A DNA stretch of 48,329 nucleotides from Cytophagales bacterium (GTDB taxonomy: Bacteria; Bacteroidota; Bacteroidia; Cytophagales; Microscillaceae), in assembly GCA_013298075.1 (NCBI GenBank), contig JAAFJG010000032.1, forward strand, positions 1 through 48,329. The letters are read 5' to 3'. The position numbers and the translations under genes are program-made. Shown here in pieces: positions 4,608 through 22,513 of this stretch (the stretch's first letter is position 1; every line of letters starts with the position of its first letter). The notes under the pieces are model-generated. The model searched no databases and had not been told where the DNA came from. It worked only from the letters and a program-made list of their open reading frames with translations.

Positions 4608-4616
4608 TATCTTTGC
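4608..4616 (+). promoter_or_regulatory. Candidate -7 promoter box for the vWA-like gene
   Basis: TATCTTTGC matches the Bacteroidota -7 consensus and lies 34 bases before the TTG start at 4651. No good TTTG is found at the right distance upstream, so only the -7 half is supported. Confidence 0.5.
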
Positions 4617-4650
4617 AATTCTATCACTCTTTAATTATCATTTTATACTC

Positions 4651-6726
4651 TTGGAACGTTTCAAAATATTGCTTTCTGCCTCGCCTTGGTGGATATTTAT
4701 ATGTGTTTTAATAGGTTTTTTATATGCTTATTTTTTATACAACCAATCAAATTTTTCAAAACCAATTCATAAATATGGATTAGCAAGTTTGCGTTTTAGT
4801 ACGGTTACTATTATTTGCTTACTTTTATTCTTAAATCCGTATTGGAGACAAATTACCAATAAGGAAGAAAAACCGATTGTAGTGATTGCTGTCGATAATT
4901 CCCAATCTATCAGCCTAACCAATGACACTACACAATTAAGAAATTATTATAAAAGTTTGGATAATTTGACAAAAGAATTAGAAAAACAAGAAGTAGAAAC
5001 GGAATGGTATAATTTGACTAATAATTCGTTTCAATTACCAAAATTTGATTGGAACGTCCCAAGCACAGATTTGAATCAATTATTAACCAAAATTCAAAAT
5101 AATTACGAAAATAGAAATATCGATAAAGTAATTTTACTTTCTGACGGAATTATCAATCAAGGTGCTTCGCCTGCGTTCAATGTGTGGAGATTTCCTATTT
5201 TAACGCTTGGTTTGGGAGATACAACTGCCAAAAAAGATTTAAAAATTCAATCTATTTTAGCCAATAAAATTGCTTATTTGGGCAATGAATTTCCAATCAG
5301 TGCAGAAATTGAAAATGTAGGTTTTCCCAATCGAACTATAAATGTGGCTTTGAGTGAAAATGGCAATGTAATTAGTCAAAAAACGATTAGTTTTAATCAA
5401 GATAATGACATTAAACAAGTTAGTTTTTATGCTCAGGCAAAACAAAAAGGCATTAGAAATTATACGATTTCGATTCAAAATTTAGAAGGCGAATTTACGT
5501 ATCAAAACAATGTTCGTGATGTATATGTGGAAGTGATTGATGGCAAAGAAAAAATATTGATTGTGGCGGCTGTGCCTCACCCAGACATAAAAGCCTTGCG
5601 TGCTTCGTTAGAAAAAAATGAAAATTATGACGTAGATATTTTTATTCCAAATATTCATCAACGCAAACAAGAAAGATATGATTTGGTAATTTATCATCAA
5701 ATTCCTAATATCAATGGCATAGGAAATGAAGTATTAAATGCGTTTCCTGAATCGTCAAAATGGTTTATTGTAGGTGGACAAACCGACTTAAATCAACTCA
5801 ATACGCTCAATAAATCAATCAAAATTTTAGGAAGACAAGGACGAACTGACCAAGTTACGCCTGTTTTTAATCGTAATTTTTCGAGATTTGGATTAGAGAA
5901 TACGAAGATGAATAAAGTCGATAAATTGCCACCTGTTACAGTTCCTTTTGGTGATTATGCGTTAGGAAATGGCGTTGATGTGGTACTTTCGCAACGCATA
6001 GGCAACACGTCTACGAGCAAACCTTTGTTGGTTTTAGATGGCAATAATTCACCAAGAACGGCTATTTTGACTGCGGAAGGCATTTGGCAATGGCGTTTAG
6101 AAGAATTTGCTTTAGAAAATAGTCACGAAAGTTTTGATGATTTGATAAGTAAAACAGCCCAATTTTTGTCTACCAAAGATGATAAAAGAAAGTTGAGAGT
6201 TTATCCGATTAATAATGAATTTTATGATTATGAAAAAGTAGTTTTCGAATCTGAAATTTACAATGATTTATACGAAAGAATATACGACCAAAAAATAAAT
6301 TTGACTTTGACAGATACCGAAGGAAAAACAAGAACCTATAATTTTACTTCGGCAGAAGGCAATACTCGTTTTGAAATTTCGGGTTTGCCCAAAGGTATTT
6401 ATAATTATAATGCAACGGCTCAAATCAGAGGAAAAAATGAACAATCTACAGGACAATTTAGCATCAAATCTTTACAATTAGAGGCTTTGACAATGACTGC
6501 AGACCATAATTTATTGAAACAATTAGCACAAAAAACGAATGGAAAATTTTATTTACCTTCGCAATTAGAAACTTTGAAAAAAGATGTGTTGAATAATAGA
6601 AAACCAAATTTATTACATTCATCTGAAGAAATTTCTGAGATGATTAACCTAAAATGGATTTTCTTTTTACTCTTAATTTTATTGACAGCAGAATGGGGAA
6701 TTAGAAAATATCAAGGAAGTTATTAA
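4651..6726 (+). CDS. Membrane protein with von Willebrand factor A-like domain
   Basis: 691 residues. Two N-terminal membrane segments (~13-31 and ~47-62) and one at the C-terminus (~663-683) frame a large soluble part. A MIDAS-like DxSxS motif (Asp82-Asn-Ser84-Gln-Ser86) follows VVIAVD, and VILLSDG lies where the second conserved strand of a vWA fold is expected. The C-terminal half has beta-rich segments like those of aerotolerance-type vWA membrane proteins. The start is TTG: no ATG lies nearby in frame, and a later start would remove the membrane segments. Exact function unknown; a role in assembly of a cell-envelope protein is typical of the superfamily. Stands alone between divergent and downstream units. 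Confidence 0.7.
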   Translation: MERFKILLSASPWWIFICVLIGFLYAYFLYNQSNFSKPIHKYGLASLRFSTVTIICLLLFLNPYWRQITNKEEKPIVVIAVDNSQSISLTNDTTQLRNYYKSLDNLTKELEKQEVETEWYNLTNNSFQLPKFDWNVPSTDLNQLLTKIQNNYENRNIDKVILLSDGIINQGASPAFNVWRFPILTLGLGDTTAKKDLKIQSILANKIAYLGNEFPISAEIENVGFPNRTINVALSENGNVISQKTISFNQDNDIKQVSFYAQAKQKGIRNYTISIQNLEGEFTYQNNVRDVYVEVIDGKEKILIVAAVPHPDIKALRASLEKNENYDVDIFIPNIHQRKQERYDLVIYHQIPNINGIGNEVLNAFPESSKWFIVGGQTDLNQLNTLNKSIKILGRQGRTDQVTPVFNRNFSRFGLENTKMNKVDKLPPVTVPFGDYALGNGVDVVLSQRIGNTSTSKPLLVLDGNNSPRTAILTAEGIWQWRLEEFALENSHESFDDLISKTAQFLSTKDDKRKLRVYPINNEFYDYEKVVFESEIYNDLYERIYDQKINLTLTDTEGKTRTYNFTSAEGNTRFEISGLPKGIYNYNATAQIRGKNEQSTGQFSIKSLQLEALTMTADHNLLKQLAQKTNGKFYLPSQLETLKKDVLNNRKPNLLHSSEEISEMINLKWIFFLLLILLTAEWGIRKYQGSY

Positions 6727-6761
6727 ATAAAAGAATTTTCATCTTAAAAATTTTGTTTTGT

Positions 6762-6869
6762 TCCCTCACCTTTGGGGAGGGTTAGGGTGGGGCTTTTAAA
6801 TAATGAAAATCACTAAAACTTTTTCTTAAAAAAAGATGCCCCACCCCTGCCCTCCCCAGTGGTGAGGGA
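6762..6869. terminator. GC-rich long inverted repeat, likely bidirectional terminator or REP-like repeat
   Basis: Arms 6762-6793 and 6838-6869 (32 bases each) are imperfect reverse complements made of CCCTCACC, GGGGAGGG and GGGTGGGGC blocks. A run of seven T follows the right arm. The arms are far richer in G and C than the surroundings. Similar CCCTCACC/GGTGAGGG hairpins are dispersed repeats in many bacterial genomes, so this may be a mobile hairpin as well as a terminator for the vWA-like gene. Confidence 0.65.
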
Positions 6870-6902
6870 GTTTTTTTATTATATAATTTTCAATAAAATC
6901 AG

Positions 6903-8171
6903 ATGAAAATATTATTTTTGAATACTTTTGAAAAATATGGTGGAGCGGCAATGGCTTGTTATCGTTTGTATCAATCTTTGAAAAAAAATACAAAGGCAAC
7001 TTATAATTTATTGGTCAGTGATATTGATAAAAATAATGAGCATACGAATACCATTAACCCAAATTATATTTCGCAAAAAATACAAAAATTAAAATTTATT
7101 ACTGAAAGAGTGAGTTATTGGGCATATATGAAAAATAAAAACTTTAAATATGCTTTTTCACCTGCGAATATTGGGCAATCCATTACAACACATTCTTTGG
7201 TAAAACAAGCCGATATTTTACATCTACATTGGATAAATTTTGGTTTTATATCTTTGAAAGAATTAGAAAAAATTTGTCAATCTGATAAAAAAATTGTTTG
7301 GACAATGCACGATATGTGGGCATTTACAGGCGGTTGTCATTATGTAGGTGCGTGTACGAATTTTGAAAAAAGTTGTGGAAATTGTCAATTTCTCAAAAAA
7401 CCTTCCCCAAAAGATTGGTCTTTTCAAATATTTGAAAGAAAAAAAGAAATCATTAAAAATAAAAAAATTACTTTTATTGGTTCGAGTAATTGGATAACAG
7501 AAGAAGCAAAAAAAAGCGGTTTATTCAACGAAAATCATCAATTTTTTCATATTCCAACGCCTATCGATACCGATATTTTTTTGCCATTAGACAAAGAAAA
7601 TCTAAGAAAAGAAATGAATTTGCCTGCTCATCAATTTTTTCTTTTGTTTGGTGCGATGAATATTGCGGACACACGCAAAGGCTTTCATTTATTGTTAAAA
7701 GCGTTAGAAATTTTGGCTGCAAAAAACAAAAATTTGCCTTTACATTTACTGATTTTTGGAAAATCTACGCCTGAAATGTTAGAAAAATTACCTTTTGCTT
7801 ATACAAATTTGGGTATTTTAAAAGGTGATATAGAAATTCAAAAAGCCTATAATTTGGCACATAGTTTTGTGTTGCCTTCTTTGGAAGATAATTTACCCAA
7901 TACCATTTTAGAAAGTTTGGCTTGTGGTACGCCAAGTTTGAGTTTTAATTTGGGAGGAATGCCTGAAATGATTGATAATGAGCTAAATGGCTTGATTACG
8001 AGAGAAAATACAGCCGAAAATTTAGCACAAAATATCGAAAAAATGATAGATTTTTGGTTAAATCAGTCTGATTTTTTTCATTTATTACAAGACAATGCAC
8101 GCAAAAAAGCACTCACAGAATACAGCGAAAAAGTAATTGCAGAAAAGTATTTTTTGAAATATGAAATGTAA
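6903..8171 (+). CDS. Glycosyltransferase family 4 (GT-B fold), WcaC-like
   Basis: 422 residues. The N-terminus MKILFLNTFEKYGGAA has the glycine-rich loop of GT-B enzymes, and the middle has HLHWINFGF and TMHDMWAFTGGCHY with a Cys-rich patch (GAC..FEKSCGNC). This is characteristic of the subgroup that includes colanic-acid-type transferases. The C-terminal nucleotide-sugar site shows the E-x7-E pattern in SLEDNLPNTILESLACGTP (~residue 327 on). It should transfer a sugar from a nucleotide donor to a growing surface or exopolysaccharide at the cytoplasmic membrane face; donor and acceptor cannot be read from sequence. No polysaccharide neighbours lie beside it, so it is an isolated gene of the pathway. 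Confidence 0.85.
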   Translation: MKILFLNTFEKYGGAAMACYRLYQSLKKNTKATYNLLVSDIDKNNEHTNTINPNYISQKIQKLKFITERVSYWAYMKNKNFKYAFSPANIGQSITTHSLVKQADILHLHWINFGFISLKELEKICQSDKKIVWTMHDMWAFTGGCHYVGACTNFEKSCGNCQFLKKPSPKDWSFQIFERKKEIIKNKKITFIGSSNWITEEAKKSGLFNENHQFFHIPTPIDTDIFLPLDKENLRKEMNLPAHQFFLLFGAMNIADTRKGFHLLLKALEILAAKNKNLPLHLLIFGKSTPEMLEKLPFAYTNLGILKGDIEIQKAYNLAHSFVLPSLEDNLPNTILESLACGTPSLSFNLGGMPEMIDNELNGLITRENTAENLAQNIEKMIDFWLNQSDFFHLLQDNARKKALTEYSEKVIAEKYFLKYEM

Positions 8172-8225
8172 TAATGAACAAATACGTATTCAAAGTAAAT
8201 TTTTTTATGTTTTTTTAAGAAGAAA

Positions 8226-8271
8226 ATCTTTGAAAATCGAGTAAATCAATCTTTGAAAATCGAGTAAATCA
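8226..8271. repeat. Perfect 23-bp tandem repeat, two units
   Basis: Units 8226-8248 and 8249-8271 are identical and are followed by a partial third (GGTAAATCTTGGTAAAT). The repeat sits between the convergent glycosyltransferase and the secreted-protein gene. No function visible. Confidence 0.8.
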
Positions 8272-8290
8272 GGTAAATCTTGGTAAATAA

Positions 8291-8887
8291 TCATCTTCCA
8301 TCTTCTGCTGCATTTTCATTCGATTTAACAGGCAAAATAATATCTTCTTTGTCAAAAGTTTCCAATAAAATCTCTATCAAAAAAAACATTTTTTCTGATT
8401 GAGGTTTTTTAAATAATCGATTTTGTTCCGCCTCAAGATTGATTTGAGATTGTAGAATAATATTTTGAATTTCAATTTCCCATTGACTAATTTTAGGTTT
8501 TAATTTTGCTAAATGTATTTGCCAATTTTTTTCATATTTTTGGGCTAATTTATCTGCTTCTAACCCATGTAGTTTATCATCTTTTTGTAAATTATCCCAA
8601 ATATCCATTATATTAGGCGTATTTTCGGGATCGAGTGTGAGCCATTTCTTTTTTTCTATTTGATATTTTTTTCTATTTTGTGCTAATGCTGTCCATTTTT
8701 CGTAGTCTTGTTTTGAGAACTTTTTTAGTAATTCTGTTCTTTCATTTTTGAGAATAGGAAATATATTTTCTTGCGAATATTTATTTATTTTTTTGATGAT
8801 AAGCAACGTATTTGAGTTATTTTCTTGCCCAAATACACATAAAATTTGACTCCAAAAAACAAATAAAGCAACCAATTTTACGAACAT
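8291..8887 (-). CDS. Small secreted protein of unknown function
   Basis: 198 residues from the ATG at 8887. A longer reading from a TTG at 8929 would overlap the promoter box and spoil the signal peptide, so I reject it. MFVKLVALFVFWSQILCVFG is a typical signal peptide. The mature part is rich in Lys, Glu, Gln and Trp with long helices (KKWLTLDPEN, AKLKPKISQWEIEIQN) and probably forms coiled coils. No family recognised. Monocistronic, with its own -7 box at 8926-8934. Confidence 0.65.
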   Translation of the reverse strand: MFVKLVALFVFWSQILCVFGQENNSNTLLIIKKINKYSQENIFPILKNERTELLKKFSKQDYEKWTALAQNRKKYQIEKKKWLTLDPENTPNIMDIWDNLQKDDKLHGLEADKLAQKYEKNWQIHLAKLKPKISQWEIEIQNIILQSQINLEAEQNRLFKKPQSEKMFFLIEILLETFDKEDIILPVKSNENAAEDGR

Positions 8888-8925
8888 AATTTTAAGTAAA
8901 TTAAATTTTAGAAATGATTTATTGT

Positions 8926-8934
8926 GCAAATATA
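8926..8934 (-). promoter_or_regulatory. Candidate -7 promoter box for the 8887 gene
   Basis: On the minus strand the box reads TATATTTGC, matching TAnnTTTGy, about 40 bases before the ATG at 8887. No clear TTTG at -33. Confidence 0.5.
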
Positions 8935-9051
8935 CGCATAAAAAATAAATAAATAAAAATTAATTTTTTTGTGGTTTTATGGATTTGCTTTTTTTGGTTC
9001 TTAGGAAATCTGTGCGGAAAAAAAATTTTTTCAAATGTATTTTTTGAATTG

Positions 9052-9071: not shown

Positions 9072-9447
9072 ATAATAAAAAAATTCAATTCTTGGTTTTA
9101 GCCAAAATCTCCGCACTTTTCAAATTAGAGTTTTTTAAATAAATGCCATTTCTATTCATACAGAAGAAAATTATATCCGCAATAATTTCCCATGAACCAA
9201 ATATTTTTTCCATAGCTTTCAAGAAATAATAAAATATTTTTCAGTAATTATACCATAATTTGATGTAAAAAACATTTCCACACTTTTAATTACAATAACA
9301 AATAACTTAGAAAAAACAGACTATAAAAAAATAAATTTAATATATATTTTGGTTATTGCTGTGCCAAAATATATAAAAACTATCAATTAATGCAATCGTT
9401 TGCAATAAATCTTACATCTGACTTCCCTCACTACTTTTTTAGTTTAG

Positions 9448-9533
9448 AATTTTTGTTAAAATAAAATTTATCAAATGATTTTGCCAATAAACTCTCAAAT
9501 TTTAATGATAATACTCATTTTTAAAAATAGGGT
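9448..9533. repeat. 86-bp direct repeat, left copy, bounding the giant-gene island
   Basis: 82 of 86 positions match the copy at 17385-17470 in the same orientation. The four differences cluster in a short stretch; the last 55 bases, from TTTTGCCAATAAACTC to AAAATAGGGT, are identical. Weaker similarity extends upstream to ATCTGAC (9416 and 17361). The copy lies 106 bases beyond the stop codon of the 2370-residue gene. It is a candidate attachment site, element end or shared regulatory sequence. Confidence 0.9.
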
Positions 9534-9639
9534 CTGGAAAGTTCGTTGATGATATTAGTTATCAAATACCTTGAAGATGGTCATTTGGGGTGGATAATTA
9601 AGTTATGAAAATTAGGATAATTATTTTCTCATATTTTAC

Positions 9640-12600
9640 TTAAAAACTATCCTTTCCTATACCTTTTGGTATAATTTTAATTTTATGTATTCCCTGAATT
9701 ATTGAATTTATATTATGAATATCCATTTTTTCAACCCCATATAAATTTTTTACGTGTTGTTCTTCTTCTTGAAAATTAAAAATACTTGGATAACTCGCAT
9801 TGTGCATCTTTAATACATATTTTATTGTGTCGGAATTTTTTTTATCTTTCACTTGTTCAGAAAAACTTCTTTCAACTAATATATAGGTTATTTGTTTTCT
9901 TTTATTTTTATTATTTGATGGGACATTGATTTTATACTTAGAATATGGAAAATCATTGTTAGCCTCCATTCCATTAAATAAATTAGGATTAAAATTAAAA
10001 ATTCTTTTTATGGTTTCGAATTGTATTTCTATTTTTCTCTTTACTTTATCAGGTTCGTTATTCATTGTTTTTAAAACAGCATAACCTTTTGACAAAATAT
10101 CAAAATAAGTATCTTCTGGTATATATTTAGTGATATTAGTAAATCCCGGATTTATTCCTCCTTGTGCTATGGAGGTAATTACTATTTTATTGTAAACGTC
10201 AACATTTATGGCTCTTAATTCTTCTAACCCGTTTACAACTTTATCTTCATATTCTACATCTTCTCCCTGATCATTCATTCTAAATCTATTGCCATAAACC
10301 TGTGAATCCCAGATTAGATTTTCGTCCTTGTCATATTTTTTAGGCAATTTTACTTCTTCATCTACTATAAGATGTTTTAAAAAATAATTATTGGGGTATT
10401 CTTTTTTTAAATCTATTAATTTTTTCACAAGGTCTCTTGCTATTACTCCTGTAACAAAAACATTTAGTTTTTCTTCTGTTGAATTATATTGTTTTTTTAA
10501 TCCTTCCACCAAAATAAAATTAATAAATCCATTATCAACCGCTTGTCTTACTCTTTCTTTTTCAAATCGATCGTTTTTATTTTGTGTCATTTGTATTTTA
10601 ATATTATCTAATATTTGTTTATACTCTTCAGATTGGGTTATAAAAATACAACCTATTCCCTTCATTGTTTTCTTTTGGTATTCTACAAGAGAATTTATAT
10701 GAGACGGCACTGTTTTACTATTTTGAATATTACTTTTTTTATCCAATAATATTTGTAAAGAGTTTATACTTTTACCAATTCCTTTTGTATCAGGAGAATT
10801 TATACTTATTTTATCTTTAAGTGTCTGAGCAAGAGATTTTAGTTCAAAAAATGTTTTTGCTATCAGCCTTGTTGTTGGATTCGATTCGTTATTAAATTCT
10901 TGTTTTAATGCATACAATACACTTACATATTCAATATATCCCGAATTTCTATTAAATGATGAGGGCGTTTCATTCCTATACAAAGACGTTAATTTTTCTT
11001 CCCTATTTAATATTTTTTTTATTACATCACTTCTCATAATTTTTATGACATTAGTAAATGGTATTCCCATCATTAACATTGTGCAGATAACTTCATTAGT
11101 TATTAACGACCCATTCATATATAAAACAAATGGATCTTTAATAGCACCTATGTTGCCTGACATCATACATGAGAGATTATCCATAATTAACATACCCGTA
11201 AGGTCTTTTGCTTTATCAAACTTGATAATAGGTGTACCATAATTATCTTTTTGAATTATTGACTCAAAAATTTCAAATGCAGTCCCTTTAAATATATCAT
11301 TCGAATAATTTTTAAATACATCACTTATCTTTATAAACCACCCCTCTCTTTGTGCGTTTTGTAGAGCCGTAATAAACACCGCTATTTGACCTACGCCTAA
11401 TGTACTATTGACGTAATCTATTTTTTTACGAGCATTAACCTCAAGATTTAATACTTGACTTTTCGTCATTGTATCAGCCTTTTTAATTTCTGTCTGTAAA
11501 TCTTCATTTTTACTAATAAAAAAATCATCTGTCGGTAAAAAGTTATAAACTTTAAAATCATCACTAAGCATACGAGCCACAAACACTTCAAGTATTTCAT
11601 TTTGATAATAAGATAAAGGTTTAGGAGAACCAAGAGATTTATATTCACCATCTAATATTTGCTTTTTGGTTTTATTATATTCCATATTGTAAATTTTATT
11701 GGCTACATTTTGGACTATATCTTTTGCTTTTTCCTCTGTAGTTCTTTTATCGTTTTTATCTTCTTGTTTAGGGTTTATTGCGTCTTCAATTTGAGATTTA
11801 ATATTATTTACAAATGCCTTTTCTTCTGGCATAATAGCACTTAATTCTTGAATATAACTATCAGGGTCTGATAAATCTAATGTTTCAGGACCAGACGATA
11901 ATTTATCTACATCAATTTTTACTTTTTTCAATAATTTCTTGACTTTCTTTTTATTTTCACCCCAATATTCCTCTTGTAAAGTTTCTTGTGATGCTTTAGT
12001 CATACTCATAATAATACCATCTTTTGTGATATGAACATTATTCAAATAAATATTAAAACTATCAATATCAAAATCAGAGCCTGACACTGCGACGATTTCT
12101 TTAAATAGCACTATATACTTATTTATGGGGTGTAAAAACTCTTTAATTCTTACAACACTACTACTACTTGTTAATTGGGAAGGAATCCTATAACCAACGG
12201 TGGTAATAATCTTTAAAAACTCTTTTTGCTCTTCTGTTAAAGACCCTTCTTGGTCTTTTTCTACCATGTCTAATATAGACGCTATTTCTTCATTTATCGC
12301 TTCAAGAGGGTCTTTTAGGTCTTCTTCTTTTTTAAGTCCATCACGCTTATTTATTCTTTCCGCTAAGGCTTCAGCGTAGCGTATTAGTTTTTCTGGTAAT
12401 GGTATTGCTACTTCTGCTGGTAAAAACTTACCTTTTGGAGTAGTCCTATAAAATTTTAGATAGTCTATATCTTTAAAATAATCAACGGCTGATACTTGTG
12501 CTAACTTCTCTCCTGATCTTTTCTCTTTTATTATTTTTTTATCGACCATCCCTGTTATTGCTGACTCTAATTTATCTTTTACTGCAAGTAAGTCTATTTT

Positions 12601-15600
12601 GTAGCCTAATTCTTTCATTTTTAAAAGACTTATTCTTGCGTTATCGCTAAGATCTTTATCTTCTGCTATGTCATTGTATATAGTCTGAAATAAAGCGTCT
12701 TTGTCAGCAATAGTAAAGTCATCACCATTTTCAAACAACCCAAGAGCCTCTTTAACGTCATTCCAACCACGTCTTATTATTTCTTCTTTGGCGTTGTTAA
12801 ACCTGTTATAATCTTGAGTTCTACCACTTGAATTATTGGTATCTTCACTGTGAAAATTAGTCCAAGCAATTTTGTTAGGCTGTGTTCCCGCTATAATTTT
12901 CCCTTTGTAATCTCCCGACTGCACTTGCTGCTCTCCAAATAAGCCCCAATCAATGACAGCGTCAAGAGTGGTTTGCCCGTCTTCTGTTTTAGTTTCATAA
13001 TTACTAAAATCAGGGAATTTCATTGCTTCACTTGAGCCATAAAAAGCGTACCCCTCTGTGATAAACAATCTATCAAGTTTCGCTTTTAATGGTGACTTTG
13101 CTGCTTCACCCCAAATTGGAATATGAATCATGGCGGAGGTCTTTAAGTTCCCCATTCTTTGCATTTCGTTGGTTTTGTCAGCGTTGATACTACCAATATA
13201 TTGTGGTTTTTGTGATGCAATCCCCGTAAATGACCCTTGAATCTTTCGTAAAATTCTAAGAGGGAGTGGCTTCTTTGATCTGTAGTGATATTCTACGTCC
13301 TGAAATAAGTTCTCGTCTTGCTTTGTCCAATTACCATGCTCAAGTTTAAAGTGCCTATAAGCGTCATAAGACATGTACCCTTGAGCATCGGATAATTTCA
13401 TTCCTTTGTAAGCCCCTTCTACTTTGGCTTTGATAATTGCTTTGTTCTTGGCTTTTTGTTCAGGGTCTTTAATATTAGCATTTACCACTTTTTCAAACAT
13501 TTCTGCTATGGTATTTATCAAAGACTCGTCAGAATCAGTCTCTGGCTCTTTGTAGATTTTTATCTTGGCGAACTTGCTAAAAGTAGGGTCAGTACTTTTT
13601 ACTCCTCTATGTGTCCTAAAGTACCTCTTTTTGTGCCAACTTTCGCTTAATTCCCCTATTTTAACCAAGTAATTAAGTTCCAAGTATAATTTTTCGTCAC
13701 TTCTTGGCATAGTTTTACTTGAGGTAGGAATAGAAAGACGCTTAAAAAAGGCTTTTGTGTCTGATAATTCCATCGAGTTTATACCTGCGATAAGTGCCGA
13801 TTCATATTTCATGACGAAGTTTATATGAACAAGCATTTTTAAAAGAGGTCTTATTTGAGAGGCTTCTCCCCCGTCATCTGTTAGAAAAGCACCATTCATT
13901 GACAAAGTGGTTTCCCCTCCTGCTTGAGTAATAACTTTTTTTTCTATTAGTTTTTGTTGAAGATTATCGACACTATCTTCTAAAAACATTTTAAATTTCT
14001 CTTTTGGCGTTCTATTTTTAAAATTTGAGTCAGTATATTGCTCGTCAATAGTCTCAAGAATCCCTTTGAATTTTGTTTTATGAGAAGCAAAGTTTGCCTT
14101 AGTTTTATATTCTAACTCTCCTTTTAAAGCCTCTTCAAACCAAGTATCTCGTGCTTGATGAAGTTTATATCGTGATGCAAATTCAAGATCATCTAAATCT
14201 AATTCATCTTCAGGTAAACGTCCTAGATTATTGATATTATCATTCCACGTCATTTTCATCATAAATTCAAGACTTCTATTTGCGGCTCTTGGAAAAGGAA
14301 TATAACCATTCATGACAAGATCCATACTTGCTCTTAATAAGTCTGTTTCATTTATGTCACTAAATGTCACACCTTCAGCCCCACGTTTAACTCCTTGCAT
14401 TAAATCTACCTCATACTTGGTGCCATATTTCATAGCACTCTCTAAACTATGGTTACGATATGTGACTTTTCCATTCTCATCCACAGTCATAAACATAGGG
14501 TTGTAATAAATATCGGGGATTTTAAGTTTTAAGAGGTCTAATCTTTTCTTTTCTCTAAGTGCCACATTAGGCTCCATCTGATATGTCGTTACCCCATTAT
14601 CTTCTTTATATGTGCCTTTTTCTACCACGTGGTTTAGCATTGCTACTCTTTGTGATAGGAAATTATTCAAAGTTAAGGCATAGGCTTTTTTACTGTCAAA
14701 AGTGTTGACGGTGTGATTTACGGCGTGTTTGCTAAAAGGGACAATTTCTCGTGCTATATTTTTAAGTTCAGAGTAAATATTATATTCTCCTGTGGTATAT
14801 TGCTCCGCTTTATTATAAATATTTACTGACTTAAAGTTTAAACCTTTTTTTATTACTTTTCCATTTTTAGTATTATCTCTTGGTATTACTTCTGTGATTC
14901 TTGTAAAAATCTCTTGTATTTTAGTCAAAGCGTTGAAAGCATCTTGATTAAGTATAGGATAATTTAAAGGAGATAAACTTGACCCTTGTTCTTCTGCTTT
15001 CTTTCTTTCCATCAATCTATTGTGTTCTTTTACTAACACAGCAGGTAGAGTTATACCTAACATTTCAAAATCAGAAGGAATTGGGGTATAAAAAACATTA
15101 TAAGCAGGCAAATTAATGTTTTCATCTTCTTTTAAATTAGAAGTTTTATAGAGATAATTACTCGCATATTCTGACAATAGTAACTCTACTTTAGTGTCGG
15201 CTGATTGATTAACTATCTCTGATTCTACGGCTCCTTTTCCTTTAAGAGTCAAAAACGTCATATTATAACGAGCAAGACTAAAATGAGAAGCAAAACTTGT
15301 TCTAATGATGTTATCATTGAAGTTAAAAGGAATTTCATAAGTACTACGTTCTAATTGGTTGATTAAACTATAAAACCACGGTTGATCACTTAAATCACGT
15401 TTCATTTTCCATATCATCTCTGTTAAGTCATTGGGCATATTAGACAAGGCTTGTCCAATTCTATTTGCTACTTCATTGTAGTCAGCATATATAGGTGATC
15501 CTAATTCATTTCGCTCCCCTGTCTTTAAAGTTGATAGTAATATTTTCACAGCACGAGGAATCCTATTTTTACTATCACTAAAGATACTTTCTTGAAAAGC

Positions 15601-16752
15601 ACTACCTTTACCTCCTGTGTTTTCCTCGTTTATTTCTATGTCTTCTTCAAGTGCTTCTTGTCTTTGTTTTTCTTTTTTCATCTCACTTTCCTCAAAAGAT
15701 ATTTGCATTTTTTTCAGGTATTTTTGGTGAAAATCACGAATTTTCCCTTCTGCTTCTCCAGTTGCGTCAAATGATATATTATTAGGATTATATAAAAGTT
15801 GATAGAACTTTTCAAATCTTTCTTTCTTAGAAGGGTCTGATGTTTGCTCATATTTATCTAATATATTATTATTTAACTGTGCTTTTACTGATTCTGCAAT
15901 TTTATAATAAGTAAATATTTCAGTTCTATCAAAAGCATCTAATATTCCCATATAAAGCATTTTCTCCATAAACAAGGTATGATAAGACTCCATAAACAAA
16001 TGGGTATCTTCAGGAGGATAACTATATTCTTTTTCAGTACCATCTTCATACTCAACTATTAAATCATTAAACCTACTATCAAAACTATTACTAATAGCAT
16101 GACTACTAATATTAAAAGTTTTATTCTTTATTTTAGAACAAATACTATCAATATTATCTCCCACAAAGAGCCACTTTAAAAACTTTATAATCTTATCAAA
16201 AATAGAGTGTCCTTTATCTTCGGCAAGCATATATTCACGAAAATCCTCCGCTAATTTTTCTTCTGCTTCTAAATCGGAATATTTCTGACCGTCTTTTTGT
16301 CGCACCTCGGTATAGAGTTTTTGACGTTCTTTTTCATTGAGAGTCATTTGCGACACGACGTGAAAAGCCTCGTGATAAACGGTGCCTTTACTTGCTAAAT
16401 CACTTATTATCACTTGTCCTTGTCTATTCAGATGTCCGAAGGCATTACTATTGACAAGCCCTTGTATCACACTAAATTCGACATTAGGGAACTTATTTTT
16501 AAACCAAGATTCTGCTTCTTGAAAGTTTTCCTGTTCTTTTTGAGTGATTTCCTTTAAATTCCATTTATCGCCTTTGTTATTATATATCACTACTTCGTTG
16601 TCTTCCATAACAAAGAGAGGGAGACTTTCATCTCCCTTCCAATCTTTGAAATTAGAAGTTTCCATTAAATTCCCCACGTAATACATGCTATCGATACCAT
16701 AGCGATTAAGTATCGCATTGTATATGGGAAGATTTTTATTGAAACAATTCAT
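9640..16752 (-). CDS. Giant protein related to crAss-like phage virion RNA polymerase, with N-terminal zincin motif
   Basis: 2370 residues, uninterrupted. Residues 1560-1564 read DFDID inside VSGSDFDIDSFNIY, the DFDxD signature that holds catalytic magnesium in multisubunit-type polymerases and marks the virion-packaged RNA polymerases of crAss-like phages (phi14:2 enzyme, 2180 residues, is the characterised example). Upstream segments such as SDAQGYMSYDAYRHF and KTSAMIHIP are conserved-looking blocks that I think belong to the same core. The N-terminal ~180 residues carry HEAFH at 127-131 and Glu165/Glu169 in EEKLAEDFREYM, a metallopeptidase pattern common in large phage and mobile-element proteins. 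In phages this enzyme enters the cell with DNA and transcribes early genes. Here it has no virion partners; an intact 7.1-kb frame suggests recent arrival or selection. Alternative: an unrelated polyvalent mobile-element protein with a chance DFDxD. Confidence 0.75.
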   Translation of the reverse strand: MNCFNKNLPIYNAILNRYGIDSMYYVGNLMETSNFKDWKGDESLPLFVMEDNEVVIYNNKGDKWNLKEITQKEQENFQEAESWFKNKFPNVEFSVIQGLVNSNAFGHLNRQGQVIISDLASKGTVYHEAFHVVSQMTLNEKERQKLYTEVRQKDGQKYSDLEAEEKLAEDFREYMLAEDKGHSIFDKIIKFLKWLFVGDNIDSICSKIKNKTFNISSHAISNSFDSRFNDLIVEYEDGTEKEYSYPPEDTHLFMESYHTLFMEKMLYMGILDAFDRTEIFTYYKIAESVKAQLNNNILDKYEQTSDPSKKERFEKFYQLLYNPNNISFDATGEAEGKIRDFHQKYLKKMQISFEESEMKKEKQRQEALEEDIEINEENTGGKGSAFQESIFSDSKNRIPRAVKILLSTLKTGERNELGSPIYADYNEVANRIGQALSNMPNDLTEMIWKMKRDLSDQPWFYSLINQLERSTYEIPFNFNDNIIRTSFASHFSLARYNMTFLTLKGKGAVESEIVNQSADTKVELLLSEYASNYLYKTSNLKEDENINLPAYNVFYTPIPSDFEMLGITLPAVLVKEHNRLMERKKAEEQGSSLSPLNYPILNQDAFNALTKIQEIFTRITEVIPRDNTKNGKVIKKGLNFKSVNIYNKAEQYTTGEYNIYSELKNIAREIVPFSKHAVNHTVNTFDSKKAYALTLNNFLSQRVAMLNHVVEKGTYKEDNGVTTYQMEPNVALREKKRLDLLKLKIPDIYYNPMFMTVDENGKVTYRNHSLESAMKYGTKYEVDLMQGVKRGAEGVTFSDINETDLLRASMDLVMNGYIPFPRAANRSLEFMMKMTWNDNINNLGRLPEDELDLDDLEFASRYKLHQARDTWFEEALKGELEYKTKANFASHKTKFKGILETIDEQYTDSNFKNRTPKEKFKMFLEDSVDNLQQKLIEKKVITQAGGETTLSMNGAFLTDDGGEASQIRPLLKMLVHINFVMKYESALIAGINSMELSDTKAFFKRLSIPTSSKTMPRSDEKLYLELNYLVKIGELSESWHKKRYFRTHRGVKSTDPTFSKFAKIKIYKEPETDSDESLINTIAEMFEKVVNANIKDPEQKAKNKAIIKAKVEGAYKGMKLSDAQGYMSYDAYRHFKLEHGNWTKQDENLFQDVEYHYRSKKPLPLRILRKIQGSFTGIASQKPQYIGSINADKTNEMQRMGNLKTSAMIHIPIWGEAAKSPLKAKLDRLFITEGYAFYGSSEAMKFPDFSNYETKTEDGQTTLDAVIDWGLFGEQQVQSGDYKGKIIAGTQPNKIAWTNFHSEDTNNSSGRTQDYNRFNNAKEEIIRRGWNDVKEALGLFENGDDFTIADKDALFQTIYNDIAEDKDLSDNARISLLKMKELGYKIDLLAVKDKLESAITGMVDKKIIKEKRSGEKLAQVSAVDYFKDIDYLKFYRTTPKGKFLPAEVAIPLPEKLIRYAEALAERINKRDGLKKEEDLKDPLEAINEEIASILDMVEKDQEGSLTEEQKEFLKIITTVGYRIPSQLTSSSSVVRIKEFLHPINKYIVLFKEIVAVSGSDFDIDSFNIYLNNVHITKDGIIMSMTKASQETLQEEYWGENKKKVKKLLKKVKIDVDKLSSGPETLDLSDPDSYIQELSAIMPEEKAFVNNIKSQIEDAINPKQEDKNDKRTTEEKAKDIVQNVANKIYNMEYNKTKKQILDGEYKSLGSPKPLSYYQNEILEVFVARMLSDDFKVYNFLPTDDFFISKNEDLQTEIKKADTMTKSQVLNLEVNARKKIDYVNSTLGVGQIAVFITALQNAQREGWFIKISDVFKNYSNDIFKGTAFEIFESIIQKDNYGTPIIKFDKAKDLTGMLIMDNLSCMMSGNIGAIKDPFVLYMNGSLITNEVICTMLMMGIPFTNVIKIMRSDVIKKILNREEKLTSLYRNETPSSFNRNSGYIEYVSVLYALKQEFNNESNPTTRLIAKTFFELKSLAQTLKDKISINSPDTKGIGKSINSLQILLDKKSNIQNSKTVPSHINSLVEYQKKTMKGIGCIFITQSEEYKQILDNIKIQMTQNKNDRFEKERVRQAVDNGFINFILVEGLKKQYNSTEEKLNVFVTGVIARDLVKKLIDLKKEYPNNYFLKHLIVDEEVKLPKKYDKDENLIWDSQVYGNRFRMNDQGEDVEYEDKVVNGLEELRAINVDVYNKIVITSIAQGGINPGFTNITKYIPEDTYFDILSKGYAVLKTMNNEPDKVKRKIEIQFETIKRIFNFNPNLFNGMEANNDFPYSKYKINVPSNNKNKRKQITYILVERSFSEQVKDKKNSDTIKYVLKMHNASYPSIFNFQEEEQHVKNLYGVEKMDIHNINSIIQGIHKIKIIPKGIGKDSF

Positions 16753-16757: not shown

Positions 16758-17099
16758 TTATGATAAATTACAGTCTTTTTTCTGTTGCTCAACTTCTTTC
16801 ATAGCCTTAACTATTTCTTGTTCTAAAGGAGTAAAAGTACTTTCCATTATGTCTTCTTCTTCCATCTTTTTTCTTACCTTGGTACTTTTTTGAATAGCCT
16901 CTTCATTGCTTTGTGGCTCTTTAGTTTCTTTTTTAGGTTTTGCTTTTATTTCTTTTGATGAAATTACAATAGGATTAACTGTTGACATAGGTGTATTATT
17001 AACTTCAACACTTTTTGTTGATTCTTGTTTTGTTTCTTCTTGGGCAACTTCATTAACCTTATTGGCTAATTCTTTTTCTATTTTAGATGTTTCAGTCAT
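16758..17099 (-). CDS. Small charged protein preceding the phage-type RNA polymerase
   Basis: 113 residues, very rich in Lys, Glu, Gln, Thr and Ser (ELANKVNEVAQEETKQES, KAKPKKETKEPQ). It has no signal peptide or membrane segment and is probably disordered apart from C-terminal helical stretches (LEQEIVKAMKEVEQQKKD). Its stop is five bases from the start of the giant gene, so the two are surely co-transcribed and perhaps translationally coupled. A chaperone-like, packaging or inhibitory partner of the polymerase is conceivable but has no sequence support. No family recognised. Confidence 0.7.
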   Translation of the reverse strand: MTETSKIEKELANKVNEVAQEETKQESTKSVEVNNTPMSTVNPIVISSKEIKAKPKKETKEPQSNEEAIQKSTKVRKKMEEEDIMESTFTPLEQEIVKAMKEVEQQKKDCNLS

Positions 17100-17164: not shown

Positions 17165-17384
17165 TTATATTTTTTTGAAAAAAATGTATATAGAATGAAT
17201 TTATTTCAAATAATTAATTTCTTACAATGAATTTGGAATAGGAATAAAAAATTTAGGTATTATTATTAAAATCGGCTTTCCGCACTCCCGTTTCACTTTA
17301 GAATATTTACTCAAAAAAATATAAATATTTAAAAAATTACGTATAAAGTATATTTAATTTATCTGACAATTTACTCGATTTATT

Positions 17385-17470
17385 AATTTTTGTTAAAATA
17401 AAATTTATTAGATAGTTTTGCCAATAAACTCTCAAATTTTAATGATAATACTCATTTTTAAAAATAGGGT
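17385..17470. repeat. 86-bp direct repeat, right copy, bounding the giant-gene island
   Basis: Partner of the repeat at 9448-9533, 7937 bases away, in the same orientation, with four mismatches clustered at about positions 24-31 of the unit. It sits ~220 bases upstream of the island promoter and 430 bases upstream of actA. Sequences outside the repeats on either side are unrelated. Confidence 0.9.
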
Positions 17471-17899
17471 GCAGAATGTTGAATCTAAATTTATCACATA
17501 AAAAACTACAATAATAACTTTTTCGTAACAATAGTAATAAAAATATATCCAAAAAAATAATATATAATTTAGAATAATTCTAAATAGTTAAGTATCTTTA
17601 AATTTCTTTGATAAAAATTTGTGTTTTTAATGATTGTGAACGAAATTGCAAGCCAAAAGGAATAATATGCGTCTGCTGTTTTTAATCAAGATACCAAGTT
17701 AAAAACTATACCTATATAATCCTTTTAAAAGCCAAATTTTTTTTGTTAGAATAAACAAATAAACAAATAATTTTTGGTGCGTATTTTGAAAGAATATTTT
17801 GATAGATTAAAAAAATGTTAAAATTCCTTTAAAAAATTGTAAAGATTAGTTATAAAAATTAAATCGTAAAAATTAAAAAATAAAATAAACTGTTTTCAG
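17471..17899. other. AT-rich leader region of the act/cox operon
   Basis: No gene is supported here. Near-matches to the -7 consensus (TATTTTGA around 17787 and 17801) are one base off, so I cannot place the operon promoter with confidence, although this is where it should be. Confidence 0.4.
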
Positions 17900-19195
17900 A
17901 TGATTATGCTGACCAATAAAACAAAAAAATCAAAAATCACTCAATATTTGAGAGGTGCTTGCTTGTGTTTGTTAGCTTTCGTTTTCACTTTAAATCTTGC
18001 ATTTGCACAAGCCGACTCTACTAAAAAAGATGGCGGAGCAGCAGCAGGAGGCGGTGCTGGTGGAGCTGATTTAGAAGTAGGTAAAAGGCTTTGGGAAGGA
18101 AACTGTACTTCTTGCCACGGTGTTGGCGCAGATGTAGTAGTTGGTCCTGGCTTGAAAGGTATTTTAGAACGTAGAACTATCGAATGGTTGATTCCTTGGG
18201 TAAAAAACTCACAGGCGGTCATCAAAAGCGGTGATAAATATGCCGTTGAATTATTCGCTAAGTTTAATAAATCGGTTATGACAAGTTTTAATTTCAAAGA
18301 CGAAGAAATTAAAGCTATTTTTGCGTATGTAGATAAGGCAAGTAAAGAAGCACCAAAAGCAGCAGTTAAAGATGTACCACCAGGAACTGAACAACCAACA
18401 CCATCTGATTCATCAGGTTATTTTAATTTGATGTTAGGGATTTTGGTAGTTGTTTTATTGCTGATATTCTCTGTTTTGTTGGTGATGTTATCAATGGTGA
18501 GTAAATTTTTGAAACAAAAAGAAGATTTAAGCATTGAAGATAAAGAAGTTGTCAATCAAAAATTTGATGTATTAAATGTACTCCAAAATCGTGTAGTATT
18601 AGGTGGAATGGCATTATTATTTGCGATGTTTGTTTTAAAAACAACTTTAGATGGCATTACAAATATTGGCGTTCAACAAGGATATGCTCCTACACAACCG
18701 ATTGCATTTTCTCACAAATTGCACGCTGGACAATACGAAATTGATTGCGGATATTGCCACACAGGCGTATATAAAGGAAAATCAGCCACTATTCCATCAG
18801 CGAATATTTGTATGAATTGTCATAATTCAATCAAAAGAGGTTCTCCAGAAATTCAAAAAATTTATAAAGCGATTGAAAATAACAAACCAATTGAATGGGT
18901 AAGAATACATAATTTACCTGATTTGGCTTATTTCAATCACGCACAACATACAAATGTAGCAGGTTTGGCTTGTGAAAAATGTCACGGCGAAATAAAAGAA
19001 ATGGAAGTGGTGCAACAAAGAGCGCCATTGACAATGGGTTGGTGTATTAATTGCCATAGACAAACTGTGGTAGAACACGCGAAAGATAACAAATATTACG
19101 ATAGACTTATAGAGGCGCATGATAAACATCAAAAAGGCACTCCTATGACTGTAGAAAATATTGGTGGTTTAGAATGCTCAAAATGTCATTATTAA
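17900..19195 (+). CDS. actA: Alternative Complex III subunit ActA, multiheme cytochrome c
   Basis: 431 residues with six CxxCH heme sites. A signal peptide is followed by a monoheme domain (CTSCHG, with a likely Met ligand in SVMTSFNF). Two membrane segments in the middle enclose a short cytoplasmic loop. The periplasmic C-terminal domain has CGYCH, CMNCH, CEKCH, CINCH and CSKCH, the pentaheme ActA core. It carries electrons from quinol oxidation toward the oxidase at the periplasmic face. First gene of the actABCDEF operon, 34 bases before actB, with a small hairpin between. The extra N-terminal heme domain is an addition to the pentaheme form. Confidence 0.92.
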   Translation: MIMLTNKTKKSKITQYLRGACLCLLAFVFTLNLAFAQADSTKKDGGAAAGGGAGGADLEVGKRLWEGNCTSCHGVGADVVVGPGLKGILERRTIEWLIPWVKNSQAVIKSGDKYAVELFAKFNKSVMTSFNFKDEEIKAIFAYVDKASKEAPKAAVKDVPPGTEQPTPSDSSGYFNLMLGILVVVLLLIFSVLLVMLSMVSKFLKQKEDLSIEDKEVVNQKFDVLNVLQNRVVLGGMALLFAMFVLKTTLDGITNIGVQQGYAPTQPIAFSHKLHAGQYEIDCGYCHTGVYKGKSATIPSANICMNCHNSIKRGSPEIQKIYKAIENNKPIEWVRIHNLPDLAYFNHAQHTNVAGLACEKCHGEIKEMEVVQQRAPLTMGWCINCHRQTVVEHAKDNKYYDRLIEAHDKHQKGTPMTVENIGGLECSKCHY

Positions 19196-19204
19196 AAAAT
19201 TCCC

Positions 19205-19219
19205 AACCCCGTTGGGGTT
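19205..19219. other. Hairpin between actA and actB
   Basis: AACCCC and GGGGTT form a 6-bp GC-rich stem with a GTT loop, followed by ATTTTAA. It could be a partial terminator or an mRNA stability element. Confidence 0.45.
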
Positions 19220-19229
19220 ATTTTAAAAA

Positions 19230-22200
19230 ATGGAAGAATTAAACAAAGTATATTGGAGAGGCATCGAAGAACTTACAAATGATGTAGAATTTGTAAAGAA
19301 TGCCGAAAAAGAATTCGCTCACGATTTGCCTGATAGCAAACAAGGTGAGGAAAACAACAACCGTCGTGATTTCTTAAAATTAATGGGCTTTAGTGTGGCA
19401 GCAGCTTCTTTAGTAGCTTGCGAAGCACCTATTAAAAAAGCCATTCCTTTTTTGAATAAACCAGAAAATTTAGACCCAAGTATTCCTAATTATTATGCTT
19501 CGACTTTCTTTGAGGCAGGTGATTATGCAAGTATTGTAGTCAAAACAAGAGAAGGACGACCTATCAAAATTGAAGGAAATACATTGTCATCAATCTCAAA
19601 AGGAAAAACGAGTGCCAAAGCACAAGCATCTATTTTGAGTTTATATGATGGACAACGTTATCAATCATTTATGCAGAGCAAAAAGGCTGTTAAAATGGCT
19701 GACGCAGATAAAACTATCAAAGAAAAATTAAAATCTGCTCAAAATGTACGTATTCTTTCTTCTACTATTATTAGTCCTTCTACAAAGGCTATTGTAAAAG
19801 AATTTAAAGAAACGTATGAAAGCACAAAACACGTTACTTATGATAGTCTTTCTCAATATGGATTGACACAGGCACATAAAGAAGGTTTTGGAGTAGATGC
19901 GGTGCCGAGTTATGATTTTAGCAAAGCGAAAGTAATTGTAAGTTTTGGTTGTGATTTTTTAGGTACTTGGGTTTCGCCTGTTGAATTTTCAGGACAATAT
20001 GCTCAAATGCGTAAATTGAATAGCAAAGAACATAAAAATGCTAATATGTCAAAACATTTTCAGTTCGAAGCGAGAATGTCAATGACTGGCGCAAATGCAG
20101 ATATTCGTGTACCTGTAAAACCTTCGCAAGAAATTACTTTATTGGCAACTTTGTATGATAAAGTAAAAGGAACAGACATAAAGGCAAAAGATGCAAATGT
20201 TGAGTTGGCTTTACAAAAAGCAGCCAAAGAATTATTAGAAGCAAAAGGAGAAAGTTTGGTGGTAAGTGGTTCTAATGATGTCAATGCACAAATTTTGGTA
20301 GCGGGTATCAATGATATGTTAGGTAATTATGGTAGTACTATTGATATTAACACGCCTTTAAATACGTATCAAGGAAATGATAAAGCGGTAGAGGCTTTGA
20401 TTGAAGAGATAAAAGGTGGTGGAGTTGATGCGATTATATTTTACGGAGTTAATCCTGTATATGACCATTACAAAGGAGAAGAATTAAAAGCGGCTTTGAG
20501 TAAAGTTGGTTTGAAAATTTCTTTTGCCTCTCAACCTGATGAAACTTCTGATTTGTGTGATTTTGTTTGCCCTGATAATCATTATTTGGAATCTTGGGGA
20601 GATGCTGAGCCACGAAAAGGACATTATAGTTTAACACAACCTGCTATTACGCCTATTTTTAGTACACGTCAAGCACAAGAAAGTTTATTGGTGTGGGCTG
20701 GGAATAATAAACCTTATTATGATTATTTACGTTCTTTTTTGAATAAAGATTTATTTAAAAAACAAAGTAAATATAAAACTTTTGATAATTTCTTCACAGG
20801 AATTTTGCATGATGGAATATTAGTTACAACGGGTGCAGCTGCATTAGTAGTAGAAAATAAAGATGATGCGAAAGAAACTGCAGAGAAAAAAGAAGATAAA
20901 GAACCGAAAAAAGACGAAAAACCTGTTAAAAAAGCAGGTAAATTTGATGGTGATGCAGATGCAGCAGCAGGGAAATTAAGCGAATATAAAGATGGTGGAT
21001 TAGAAATAACTACTTATCAAAAATTGGCTATTGGAAATGGTGCAAATGCAAATAATCCTTGGTTACAAGAAATGCCTGACCCAATTACAAAAGCTTGTTG
21101 GGCAAATTACGCATCAATGTCGCCTAAAACAGCCAAAGAAAAAGGAGTTTCAAATGGTGATGTAGTAAAAATATCAGCAGGGAAAACAAGTTTCGAAGTG
21201 CCTGTTTTATTGCAACCAGGTCAAGCAGACAATACGATTGCGGTAGCTGTGGGATATGGTAGAAAAGTAAGTGGAAAAGTAGGTATAAATGTGGGAGCAA
21301 ATGTATTTCCTTTGACTGCCAAACAATATGATTCTGCCAGCATTTCAAAAACTGATAAAATTGACGAAGTAGCACAAACGCAAACTCATAATACAATTAT
21401 GGGACGTAGTATTATTCAAGAAGCAAGTTTATTAGATTACAAAGATAAACCAAATGCAGGTCGTGTATATCCTCACGTAAGTTCTTCTGATGGCAAAAGT
21501 CGTACTCCTTACGAAGTAACTTTGTGGAAAGGGCATCAATATTACAATCATTCTTGGGGAATGGCTATTGATTTGAACTCTTGCACAGGTTGTAGTGCTT
21601 GTACGATTGCTTGTCAAATAGAAAATAATGTACCTGTTGTAGGTAAAAAAGAAGTGTTAAATCGTCGTGAAATGCACTGGATTAGAATTGACCGCTATTA
21701 TAGCAGTGAAGAAAGTGCAGTAAGTTTTGGCGATATGGAAAAAGAAGCTGTCAATCCGCAGGTTACTTTTATGCCGATGATGTGCCAACATTGTAATAAT
21801 GCTCCTTGCGAAACGGTTTGCCCTGTATTAGCAACCACTCATAGTAGTGAAGGTTTGAACCAAATGACTTATAATCGTTGCATTGGAACACGTTATTGTG
21901 CTAATAACTGCCCATACAAAGTGCGTCGTTTTAACTGGTTTCATTACGCTGAAGATGATAGATTTACGGACATAAATTATGTTCAAACGTCAGATTTAGG
22001 CAGAATGGTTATCAATCCTGATGTTACGGTGCGTTCTCGTGGAATAATGGAAAAATGCAGTATGTGTATTCAACGTGTTCAAGCGGGAAAATTACAAGCG
22101 AAAAAAGAAAAACGCCACGTAAAAGATGGAGAAATCAAAACGGCTTGTCAGCAAGTTTGTCCTACTGATGCGATTACTTTTGGAGATATGAATGACATGG

Positions 22201-22445: not shown

Positions 22446-22454
22446 ATATAAATC

Positions 22455-22480: not shown

Positions 22481-22513
22481 AAATAAATTGATTAAAAAAA
22501 AGAATATAAATAT

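What the first reader, a model, noticed from the sequence alone, without database searches (positions are those of the whole stretch)
9640..16752. Full-length crAss-like virion RNA polymerase homologue stranded in a chromosome
Seen: one uninterrupted 2370-codon frame with DFDID at residues 1560-1564 in VSGSDFDIDSFNIY. Known: crAss-like phages encode a ~2.2-kilo-residue virion RNA polymerase with DFDxD (phi14:2 enzyme). Inference: this is a homologue, here without capsid, portal, terminase or tail genes and wedged between a small secreted-protein gene and a core respiratory operon. An intact 7.1-kb gene decays quickly without selection, so it is either very recent or useful, for example as a domesticated polymerase, a satellite or an anti-phage decoy.
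Basis: partly seen in the sequence, partly recalled or inferred. Interest (0 to 1): 0.92.

Follow-up and report, generated by a model that had tools for sequence, protein, structure and literature searches.

The report
Lone phage RNA polymerase in chromosome
A bacterial chromosome carries one complete giant gene for the RNA polymerase that crAss-like viruses inject into their hosts, with none of the other virus genes found beside it, so it is either a recent stray or a viral enzyme the bacterium has kept for its own use.

Summary
Window 9640-16752 (-) is one intact 2370-codon ORF with DFDID at residues 1560-1564. It is a full-length homologue of the crAss-like phage RNA polymerase: profile match over residues 1094-2318, and an AlphaFold2 model of residues 1090-2289 (pTM 0.80) matching the phi14:2 virion polymerase (PDB 6VR4) at Z 21.5 over 884 residues. 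The gene is alone: no trace of the phage neighbours, no crAss terminase found in its genome, and conserved host genes on both sides. Two decayed host MITEs flank it. Its polymerase half has lost unusually many otherwise conserved residues while the N-terminal half has not (largest gap among 51 homologues), yet the frame has no stop or frameshift, which argues strongly against an old neutral relic. What remains is a gene kept by the host lineage (favoured) or a recent capture from an unsampled divergent phage. Identity is as good as certain; function is inferred, not shown.

The parts
9640..16752 (-). 2370-aa homologue of the crAss-like phage zincin-RNA polymerase protein
16063..16581 (-). zincin-like peptidase region, about residues 58-230
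   Evidence: homology to phage zincin regions; H127 and E128 invariant, E165 at least 90% in A3; fold match to zinc peptidases only weak
16360..16374 (-). HEAFH motif, residues 127-131
15256..16035 (-). residues 240-499, matching 6VR4 residues 95-341
   Evidence: VIA-align Z 9.6, 205 aligned, 3.6 A; Foldseek alone found no significant match
9997..13485 (-). polymerase core, residues 1090-2252, matching 6VR4 residues 938-2009
12061..12075 (-). DFDID catalytic motif, residues 1560-1564
   Evidence: GSDFDxD invariant in A1 and A2
16758..17099 (-). 113-aa lysine- and glutamate-rich ORF, stop codon 5 nt before the polymerase start; possible partner or leader gene
   Evidence: no relatives found
9413..9546 (+). 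decayed, internally deleted MITE copy downstream of the polymerase stop
17272..17484 (+). decayed near full-length MITE copy upstream of the 113-aa ORF
4585..8959 (.). left host block in the same order in same-genus genome G001; DNA homology ends about 8955
17539..26874 (+). right host block: DNA upstream of actA and the alternative complex III genes; homology to G001 and G002 starts about 17539-17550

Best explanation
SHOWN: the ORF is a full-length, intact homologue of the crAss-like phage zincin-polymerase protein, standing alone on a host contig without the rest of a phage. INFERRED: it was captured from a crAss-like phage whose polymerase was a separate zincin-first ORF (polymerase-half tree: L047/L050 nearest). 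The neighbouring phage genes have gone without trace, while the host lineage kept this frame, perhaps with the 113-aa ORF, under selection for an intact product. MOST LIKELY MECHANISM (inferred, about 20% on its own): the protein resembles one of the cargo proteins that these phages eject into the cell; made by the host, it could compete with or mis-assemble the incoming phage transcription machinery, or cleave part of it with its peptidase, so it would interfere with infection rather than do routine transcription. An auxiliary YonO-like host polymerase is the second functional reading. Sub-confidences: identity 0.97; alone in the chromosome 0.9; host-maintained 0.5; interference role 0.2.
For: Fold and sequence identity. 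Both motifs kept. No stop in 2370 codons where about 4.4 are expected per 1% neutral divergence. Polymerase half changed at many conserved columns: 29 of 35 kept at the 90% level against a median of 34 of 35, while the N-terminal half is ordinary, 20 of 24 at the 70% level; the gap between the halves is the largest of 51 at all three thresholds. In phages 66 of 69 downstream large ORFs start within 50 bp of the polymerase stop; here there is none and no trace of neighbours, which suggests erosion around a kept frame. Host blocks conserved in a congener on both sides. crAss terminase not found in this genome but found in 5 of 8 in the control run.
Against: No expression, no dN/dS (no close relative exists in what I searched), absent from all 56 other relatives searched. 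Codon choice is unlike host genes (-0.206 against -0.096 to +0.072 in 16 host genes), so it is not fully adapted. The long branch could have arisen in an unsampled phage; L027, a phage-like contig, is longer still. Rank 1 of 51 is only about p 0.02. One column that is D in all other rows is G here (residue 1869), which may mean an impaired enzyme. The two halves do not agree on the nearest relative: L047 for the polymerase, L086 and others for the N-terminal half.
Confidence: 0.45

Rival explanations
1. Recent stray: one gene, or a fragment trimmed to one gene, from an unsampled divergent crAss-like phage landed in the chromosome recently and does nothing for the host; the frame is intact because too little time has passed.
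For: Absent from 56 other relatives; found in only 1 of 389 other genomes of the order scan; host-unlike codon choice; long branches also occur in phage-like rows.
Against: Phage neighbours normally abut the gene (66 of 69 within 50 bp), yet no fragment of them remains. The gap between the halves has no equal among the other 50 homologues.
Confidence: 0.3
2. Old neutral relic of a decayed prophage.
For: Complete prophage-like crAss-type regions exist in Bacteroidota chromosomes (Chitinophaga YR573).
Against: No stop or frameshift in 7.1 kb against about 4.4 stops expected per 1% neutral divergence; no other phage remnants in the flanks.
Confidence: 0.04
3. The polymerase and the 113-aa ORF form a mobile or satellite-like unit bounded by the two flanking repeats.
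For: Two repeat copies in the same orientation bracket exactly these two genes. They share a 55-nt exact run, against at most 34 nt with other fetched copies, are 95% alike over 86 nt, and pair in a FastTree with support 0.806.
Against: Over 94 model columns they are no more alike (0.883) than the left copy is to many other family members; each seems to be a MITE copy of its own, the left one with an internal deletion; 36 family matches occur across the genome; no recombinase family among the 20 window proteins scanned; the polymerase is single copy.
Confidence: 0.08
4. Assembly artefact: a phage fragment misjoined between two host fragments.
For: Metagenome-style draft genome of 153 contigs; repeats lie at both junctions; in congener G001 the two host blocks are on different contigs.
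Against: Two misjoins would be needed; exact repeats at the junctions are short (at most 34 nt to other fetched copies, 55 nt left to right); no other crAss hallmark was found in the assembly.
Confidence: 0.08

Closest known systems
[quoted passage not shown] gp077 in KC821624)
   Same: Same fold over 884 aligned residues (Z 21.5, 18% identity), same GSDFDxD and GYRxP motifs, collinear N-terminal region.
   Different: Window protein carries a zincin-like domain at its own N-terminus and sits alone in a host chromosome; phi14:2 encodes it among other large structural proteins. Virion packaging untested.
Stand-alone zincin-polymerase ORFs of uncultivated crAss-like phages (L047, L103, L039, L022)
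   Same: Same order and size: HExxH near the start, DFDxD at 1415-1599, 2257-2576 aa.
   Different: There it abuts other large genes; only about 23% identity at best in the tree alignment.
crAss-type region in the Chitinophaga sp. YR573 chromosome (L014)
   Same: Homologous polymerase in a Bacteroidota chromosome.
   Different: There a 5485-aa fusion with terminase, portal, capsid and integrase genes around it.
YonO-like single-chain RNA polymerases (SPbeta prophage and bacterial main genomes; PMC5467207)
   Same: Precedent for a single-chain polymerase of phage type in bacterial main genomes.
   Different: YonO is about 100 kDa without a zincin (paper passages); no sequence comparison was run here.
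Polyvalent proteins of phages and conjugative elements (PMC5512222)
   Same: Large multidomain protein with a zincin-like peptidase and, in the phage N4 example, a polymerase.
   Different: Those are delivered with an element's DNA; no delivery genes were found here.

Membership tests
crAss-like phage RNA polymerase protein family | GSDFDxD catalytic motif in a conserved sequence context | tested here: met
crAss-like phage RNA polymerase protein family | fold of the phi14:2 enzyme (6VR4) | tested here: met
crAss-like phage RNA polymerase protein family | the three aspartates converge in an active site | not tested
   no coordinates available to me; only sequence context and model confidence were seen
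Virion RNA polymerase (as a virus component) | gene lies among phage virion genes | tested here: not met
   so it is filed as a homologue, not as a virion polymerase
Virion RNA polymerase (as a virus component) | packaged in virions, transcribes early genes | not testable with these tools
   needs experiment
Crassvirales prophage | terminase large subunit of crAss type in the genome | tested here: not met
   control one search found it in 5 of 8 genomes, not in G000
Crassvirales prophage | crAss-type portal and major capsid genes | tested here: inconclusive
   not found in G000, but these two families had no genome-search positive control
Zincin-like metallopeptidase | HExxH helix plus downstream Glu | tested here: met
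   HEAFH 127-131, E165
Zincin-like metallopeptidase | zincin fold | tested here: inconclusive
   VIA-align Z 6.6 or less to zinc peptidases; nothing significant by Foldseek
YonO-like polymerases | sequence homology to YonO | not tested
   considered from PMC5467207 only
Polyvalent proteins | delivery into the recipient with the element's DNA | not testable with these tools
   no delivery genes found nearby

The most novel reading that the evidence does not exclude
A bacterium has domesticated a crAss-like zincin-RNA polymerase as a one- or two-gene chromosomal system, with the polymerase re-tuned and the peptidase kept, either to sabotage the ejected transcription machinery of incoming crAss-like phages or to transcribe special genes of its own.
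Probability: 0.35. Interest if true: 0.82.

Novelty: new variant of a known kind. Interest (0 to 1): 0.62.

Why it matters
crAss-like phages are the dominant gut viruses, and a giant ejected polymerase is one of their hallmarks. A lone, intact chromosomal copy whose polymerase and peptidase halves evolve differently would be a natural experiment on which parts of that machine are useful without a phage, and would point to a new kind of anti-phage interference or a new cellular RNA polymerase. Even if it proves a recent stray, it documents clean single-gene transfer from these viruses; the crAss-type region with an integrase in the Chitinophaga YR573 chromosome shows a plausible route.

Tried and rejected
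Direct repeats as attachment sites: the 96-nt direct repeats around the unit first looked like insertion footprints. A genome-wide search gave 36 matches, and alignment showed a dispersed ~228-nt MITE with terminal inverted repeats. The evidence on whether the two copies descend from one event is mixed. For: 95% over 86 nt, a 55-nt exact run, pairing with support 0.806. Against: 0.883 over 94 model columns, the same as to many other copies. I therefore dropped it as proof. If they were identical at insertion, their 5-8% difference would imply roughly 11-18 expected stops in a neutral ORF, which would strengthen selection; this is conditional. The right copy does not fold unusually.

Family libraries: Pfam, PADLOC and PDB sequence search gave nothing for the protein, PHROGs one insignificant hit (E 1.8). 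Single-sequence scans of viral contigs confirmed no relative; the alignment A1 was needed. No plasmid match.

113-aa ORF: no relative among phage records, ORFs of the fetched loci, Pfam or PADLOC.

Promoter: a TATATTTG, like the Bacteroidota -7 element (motif recalled, from no call), lies 57 nt upstream of the 113-aa ORF, but the pattern is not enriched in the window (103 against 91 +/- 9); given no weight.

Zincin: a strict motif scan caught only 8 of 118 ORFs; the profile found 77 domains, of which 50 have HExxH.

Other window ORFs against fetched loci: two matches only, 40113-40889 and 42352-43161, both to ORFs in the flanks of the Aenigmatarchaeota region; far from the polymerase, not pursued.

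Satellite or defence-island reading: no integrase or packaging family among 20 window proteins scanned with Pfam, no PADLOC hit for the four proteins tried.

Full report
OBSERVATION. Window 9640-16752 on the minus strand is one ATG-started frame of 2370 codons without a stop; DFDID is at residues 1560-1564. Pfam, PADLOC and PDB sequence searches are silent and PHROGs gives one insignificant hit, but tblastn against phages gives 97 records at E<=1 (40 were listed). The nine hits I opened all carry a Crassvirales taxonomy line. Plasmids: no match.

WHAT IT IS. BLAST places window residues within 1111-1581, including 1514-1575, and 1845-2212 on phage polymerases, phi14:2 gp77 among them, and residues 75-464 (24%) and 78-218 (35-40%) on phage zincin regions. 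In a nine-row alignment of the polymerase core (A1) GYRxP and GSDFDxD are invariant. Scanning fetched ORFs with that profile gives 124 ORFs (window copies and duplicate loci included) and aligns window residues 1094-2318. Alignment A2 has the window and 68 homologues, out of 103 loci from the search for related loci (80 viral of 308 found, 23 genome contigs); rows spanning under 850 profile positions and nine I judged near-duplicates were dropped. It gave an AlphaFold2 model of residues 1090-2289 with pLDDT 77.8 and pTM 0.80. The only PDB match at E<=0.001 is 6VR4, the phi14:2 virion polymerase: Foldseek E 9.3e-28, VIA-align Z 21.5, 884 residues, 3.4 A; next are QDE-1 entries at Z 13.3. The model of residues 1-600 (A3: window and 59 of 66 candidate rows; pLDDT 72.1, pTM 0.54) has 6VR4 residues 95-341 as its best VIA-align match (Z 9.6, 205 residues), while Foldseek alone found nothing significant. 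So the protein appears collinear with the phi14:2 enzyme and carries in addition an N-terminal zincin-like domain with HEAFH at 127-131 and E165; H127 and E128 are invariant and E165 at least 90% conserved in A3. Of 118 loci with the polymerase profile (window copies and late duplicates, not scanned for zincin, included), 74 have a zincin domain; 50 of the 77 domains hold HExxH.

FULL LENGTH. Of 11 loci whose genes I listed, four have the zincin-polymerase as one complete separate ORF of 2257-2576 aa with the same order (L022, L039, L047, L103), and L027 has one cut at its 5' end. Elsewhere it is part of a longer fusion, or the zincin sits in the preceding gene. The tree (77 rows, 1004 columns) joins the window to L047/L050 with SH-aLRT 99, but its end branch is 2.52 against a median of 0.57, second only to L027 (2.77), so its place is uncertain; in a quick tree of the N-terminal half L047 is not among the five nearest rows.

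ALONE. The phage module is tight: of 98 polymerase loci, 69 have a large downstream ORF near the stop, and in 66 of 69 it starts within 50 bp (first Met after the preceding stop). The window has none, and 69 downstream plus 67 upstream neighbour proteins give no phmmer hit in six-frame pieces of 8000-9640 and 16740-18000; BLAST of the flanks gave none either. crAss terminase, portal and capsid families find nothing in the host genome (4.71 Mb, 153 contigs, 97.9% complete). As these searches rang nowhere, I ran a control: the terminase family finds 5 of 8 genomes (G123, G287, G445, G446, G449) but not G000, G447 or G448. Portal and capsid had no such control. The two other polymerase-bearing genomes of the class scan (3 of 395 with own) thus hold a crAss terminase; the window genome shows none.

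SURROUNDINGS. Right: alternative complex III and cytochrome oxidase genes, with DNA conserved in congeners G001 and G002 from about 17539-17550. Left: 4585-8959 in the same order in G001, DNA homology to about 8955. In G001 the two blocks lie on different contigs with other neighbours, so the unit sits at a synteny break; in G002 (79% complete) the left block was not found: its best glycosyltransferase match is only 36%. The gene is in 0 of 56 other relatives (single-protein search) and in 1 of 389 other genomes of the order. That one (G539) has it in a stretch with several other phage homologues (terminase not tested). In Chitinophaga sp. YR573 the homologue lies in a region with recognised terminase, portal, capsid and integrase. 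Two decayed copies of a dispersed ~228-nt MITE flank the unit (9413-9546, 17272-17484). They tie the flanks to this genome; whether they arose in one event is undecided and they do not date the insertion. The host's taxon was not told; Bacteroidota is my inference.

SELECTION OR STRAY. At columns at least 90% conserved in A2 the window keeps 29 of 35 (median of others 34 of 35; 1 of 68 rows as low or lower); at 80% 43 of 55 and at 70% 61 of 90 (5 of 68 rows as low or lower each). Twelve positions differ at the 80% level, among them 1541, 1544, 1550, 1556, 1868, 1909 and 1869, the last D in all other rows and G here; 1565 is S here but also S in several gut phages. The N-terminal alignment is ordinary: 5 of 5, 10 of 12 and 20 of 24. 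Among 51 homologues with both regions, the window has the largest gap between the halves at all three thresholds; its end branch is 3.08 times the median (rank 2) in the polymerase half and 1.67 times (rank 7) in the N-terminal half. Had the extra changes accumulated neutrally in the chromosome, about 4.4 stops per 1% divergence would be expected; there are none. So they arose either in an unsampled phage lineage before a recent capture, or in the host under selection for an intact product. Loss without trace of neighbours that normally abut the gene favours the second. Codon choice unlike the host (-0.206 against -0.096 to +0.072 in 16 host genes of at least 900 nt; GC3 within the host range) and absence from relatives favour the first; five phage polymerases scored from -0.70 to +0.19 on the same scale, so codon choice is weak evidence.

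ARTEFACT. Exact matches between flanks and other fetched repeat copies are at most 34 nt, and 55 nt left to right. Two misjoins are unlikely but not excluded.

KNOWN. phi14:2-type polymerases are virion components that transcribe early genes, and their transcription block is in all crAss-like groups but Epsilon (passages of PMC7886860). phicrAss001 carries three polymerase-associated proteins as cargo (passages of PMC10172136). A review holds that crAss-like phages seem strictly lytic (passages of PMC10136315), while PMC7886860 allows that some host matches may be prophages. YonO-like single-chain polymerases occur in main genomes of bacteria, with a suggested role in special gene sets (passages and discussion of PMC5467207). 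Zincin-like peptidases fused to polymerases are a theme of polyvalent proteins (passages of PMC5512222). The phi14:2 structure paper is not held. Six searches showed me 10-19 listed papers each; no title or abstract start there reports a lone chromosomal crAss polymerase, but I saw only the listed part and did not read those papers through.

VERDICT. Identity as good as certain; solitary chromosomal location nearly so; host maintenance the most likely single option but unproven; function open, with interference against crAss-like phages my leading guess.

Noticed in passing
L014; L123-L127 (Chitinophaga sp. YR573 chromosome, about 3.694-3.768 Mb): Apparently complete crAss-type prophage region in a named bacterial chromosome: terminase, portal, capsid, 5485-aa polymerase fusion and an integrase, although a review calls these phages strictly lytic.
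   Followed up: partly
L206-L209 (G539 contig 9, 150-229 kb): A same-order genome holds the polymerase (3359-aa ORF) in a stretch with several other crAss-type homologues on a 229-kb contig.
   Followed up: partly
L017, L120, L202 (CP070801.1, Aenigmatarchaeota MAG chromosome): An archaeal MAG 'chromosome' carries a crAss-type polymerase (about 927-930 kb) and terminase (about 871-873 kb); most likely a binning or assembly chimera.
   Followed up: no
window 9413-9546, 17272-17484 and L173-L201: Dispersed ~228-nt MITE-like family with terminal inverted repeats, 36 matches in the genome at E<=0.01.
   Followed up: partly
window 533-2645 (-): Four tandem, closely similar ORFs of 172-181 aa with signal-peptide-like starts.
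   Followed up: no
window 2675-4384 (-): 569-aa ORF with a sub-threshold eCIS_core-type match (E 0.0012, 19.4 bits against a cut-off of 22) and an HELFH motif visible in the translation.
   Followed up: no
L002 19483-19775 (phage cr108_1): The phage polymerase gene is split at the DFDxD motif: profile positions 51-487 in one ORF and 488-1244 in the next, which would fit the introns reported for these phages.
   Followed up: no
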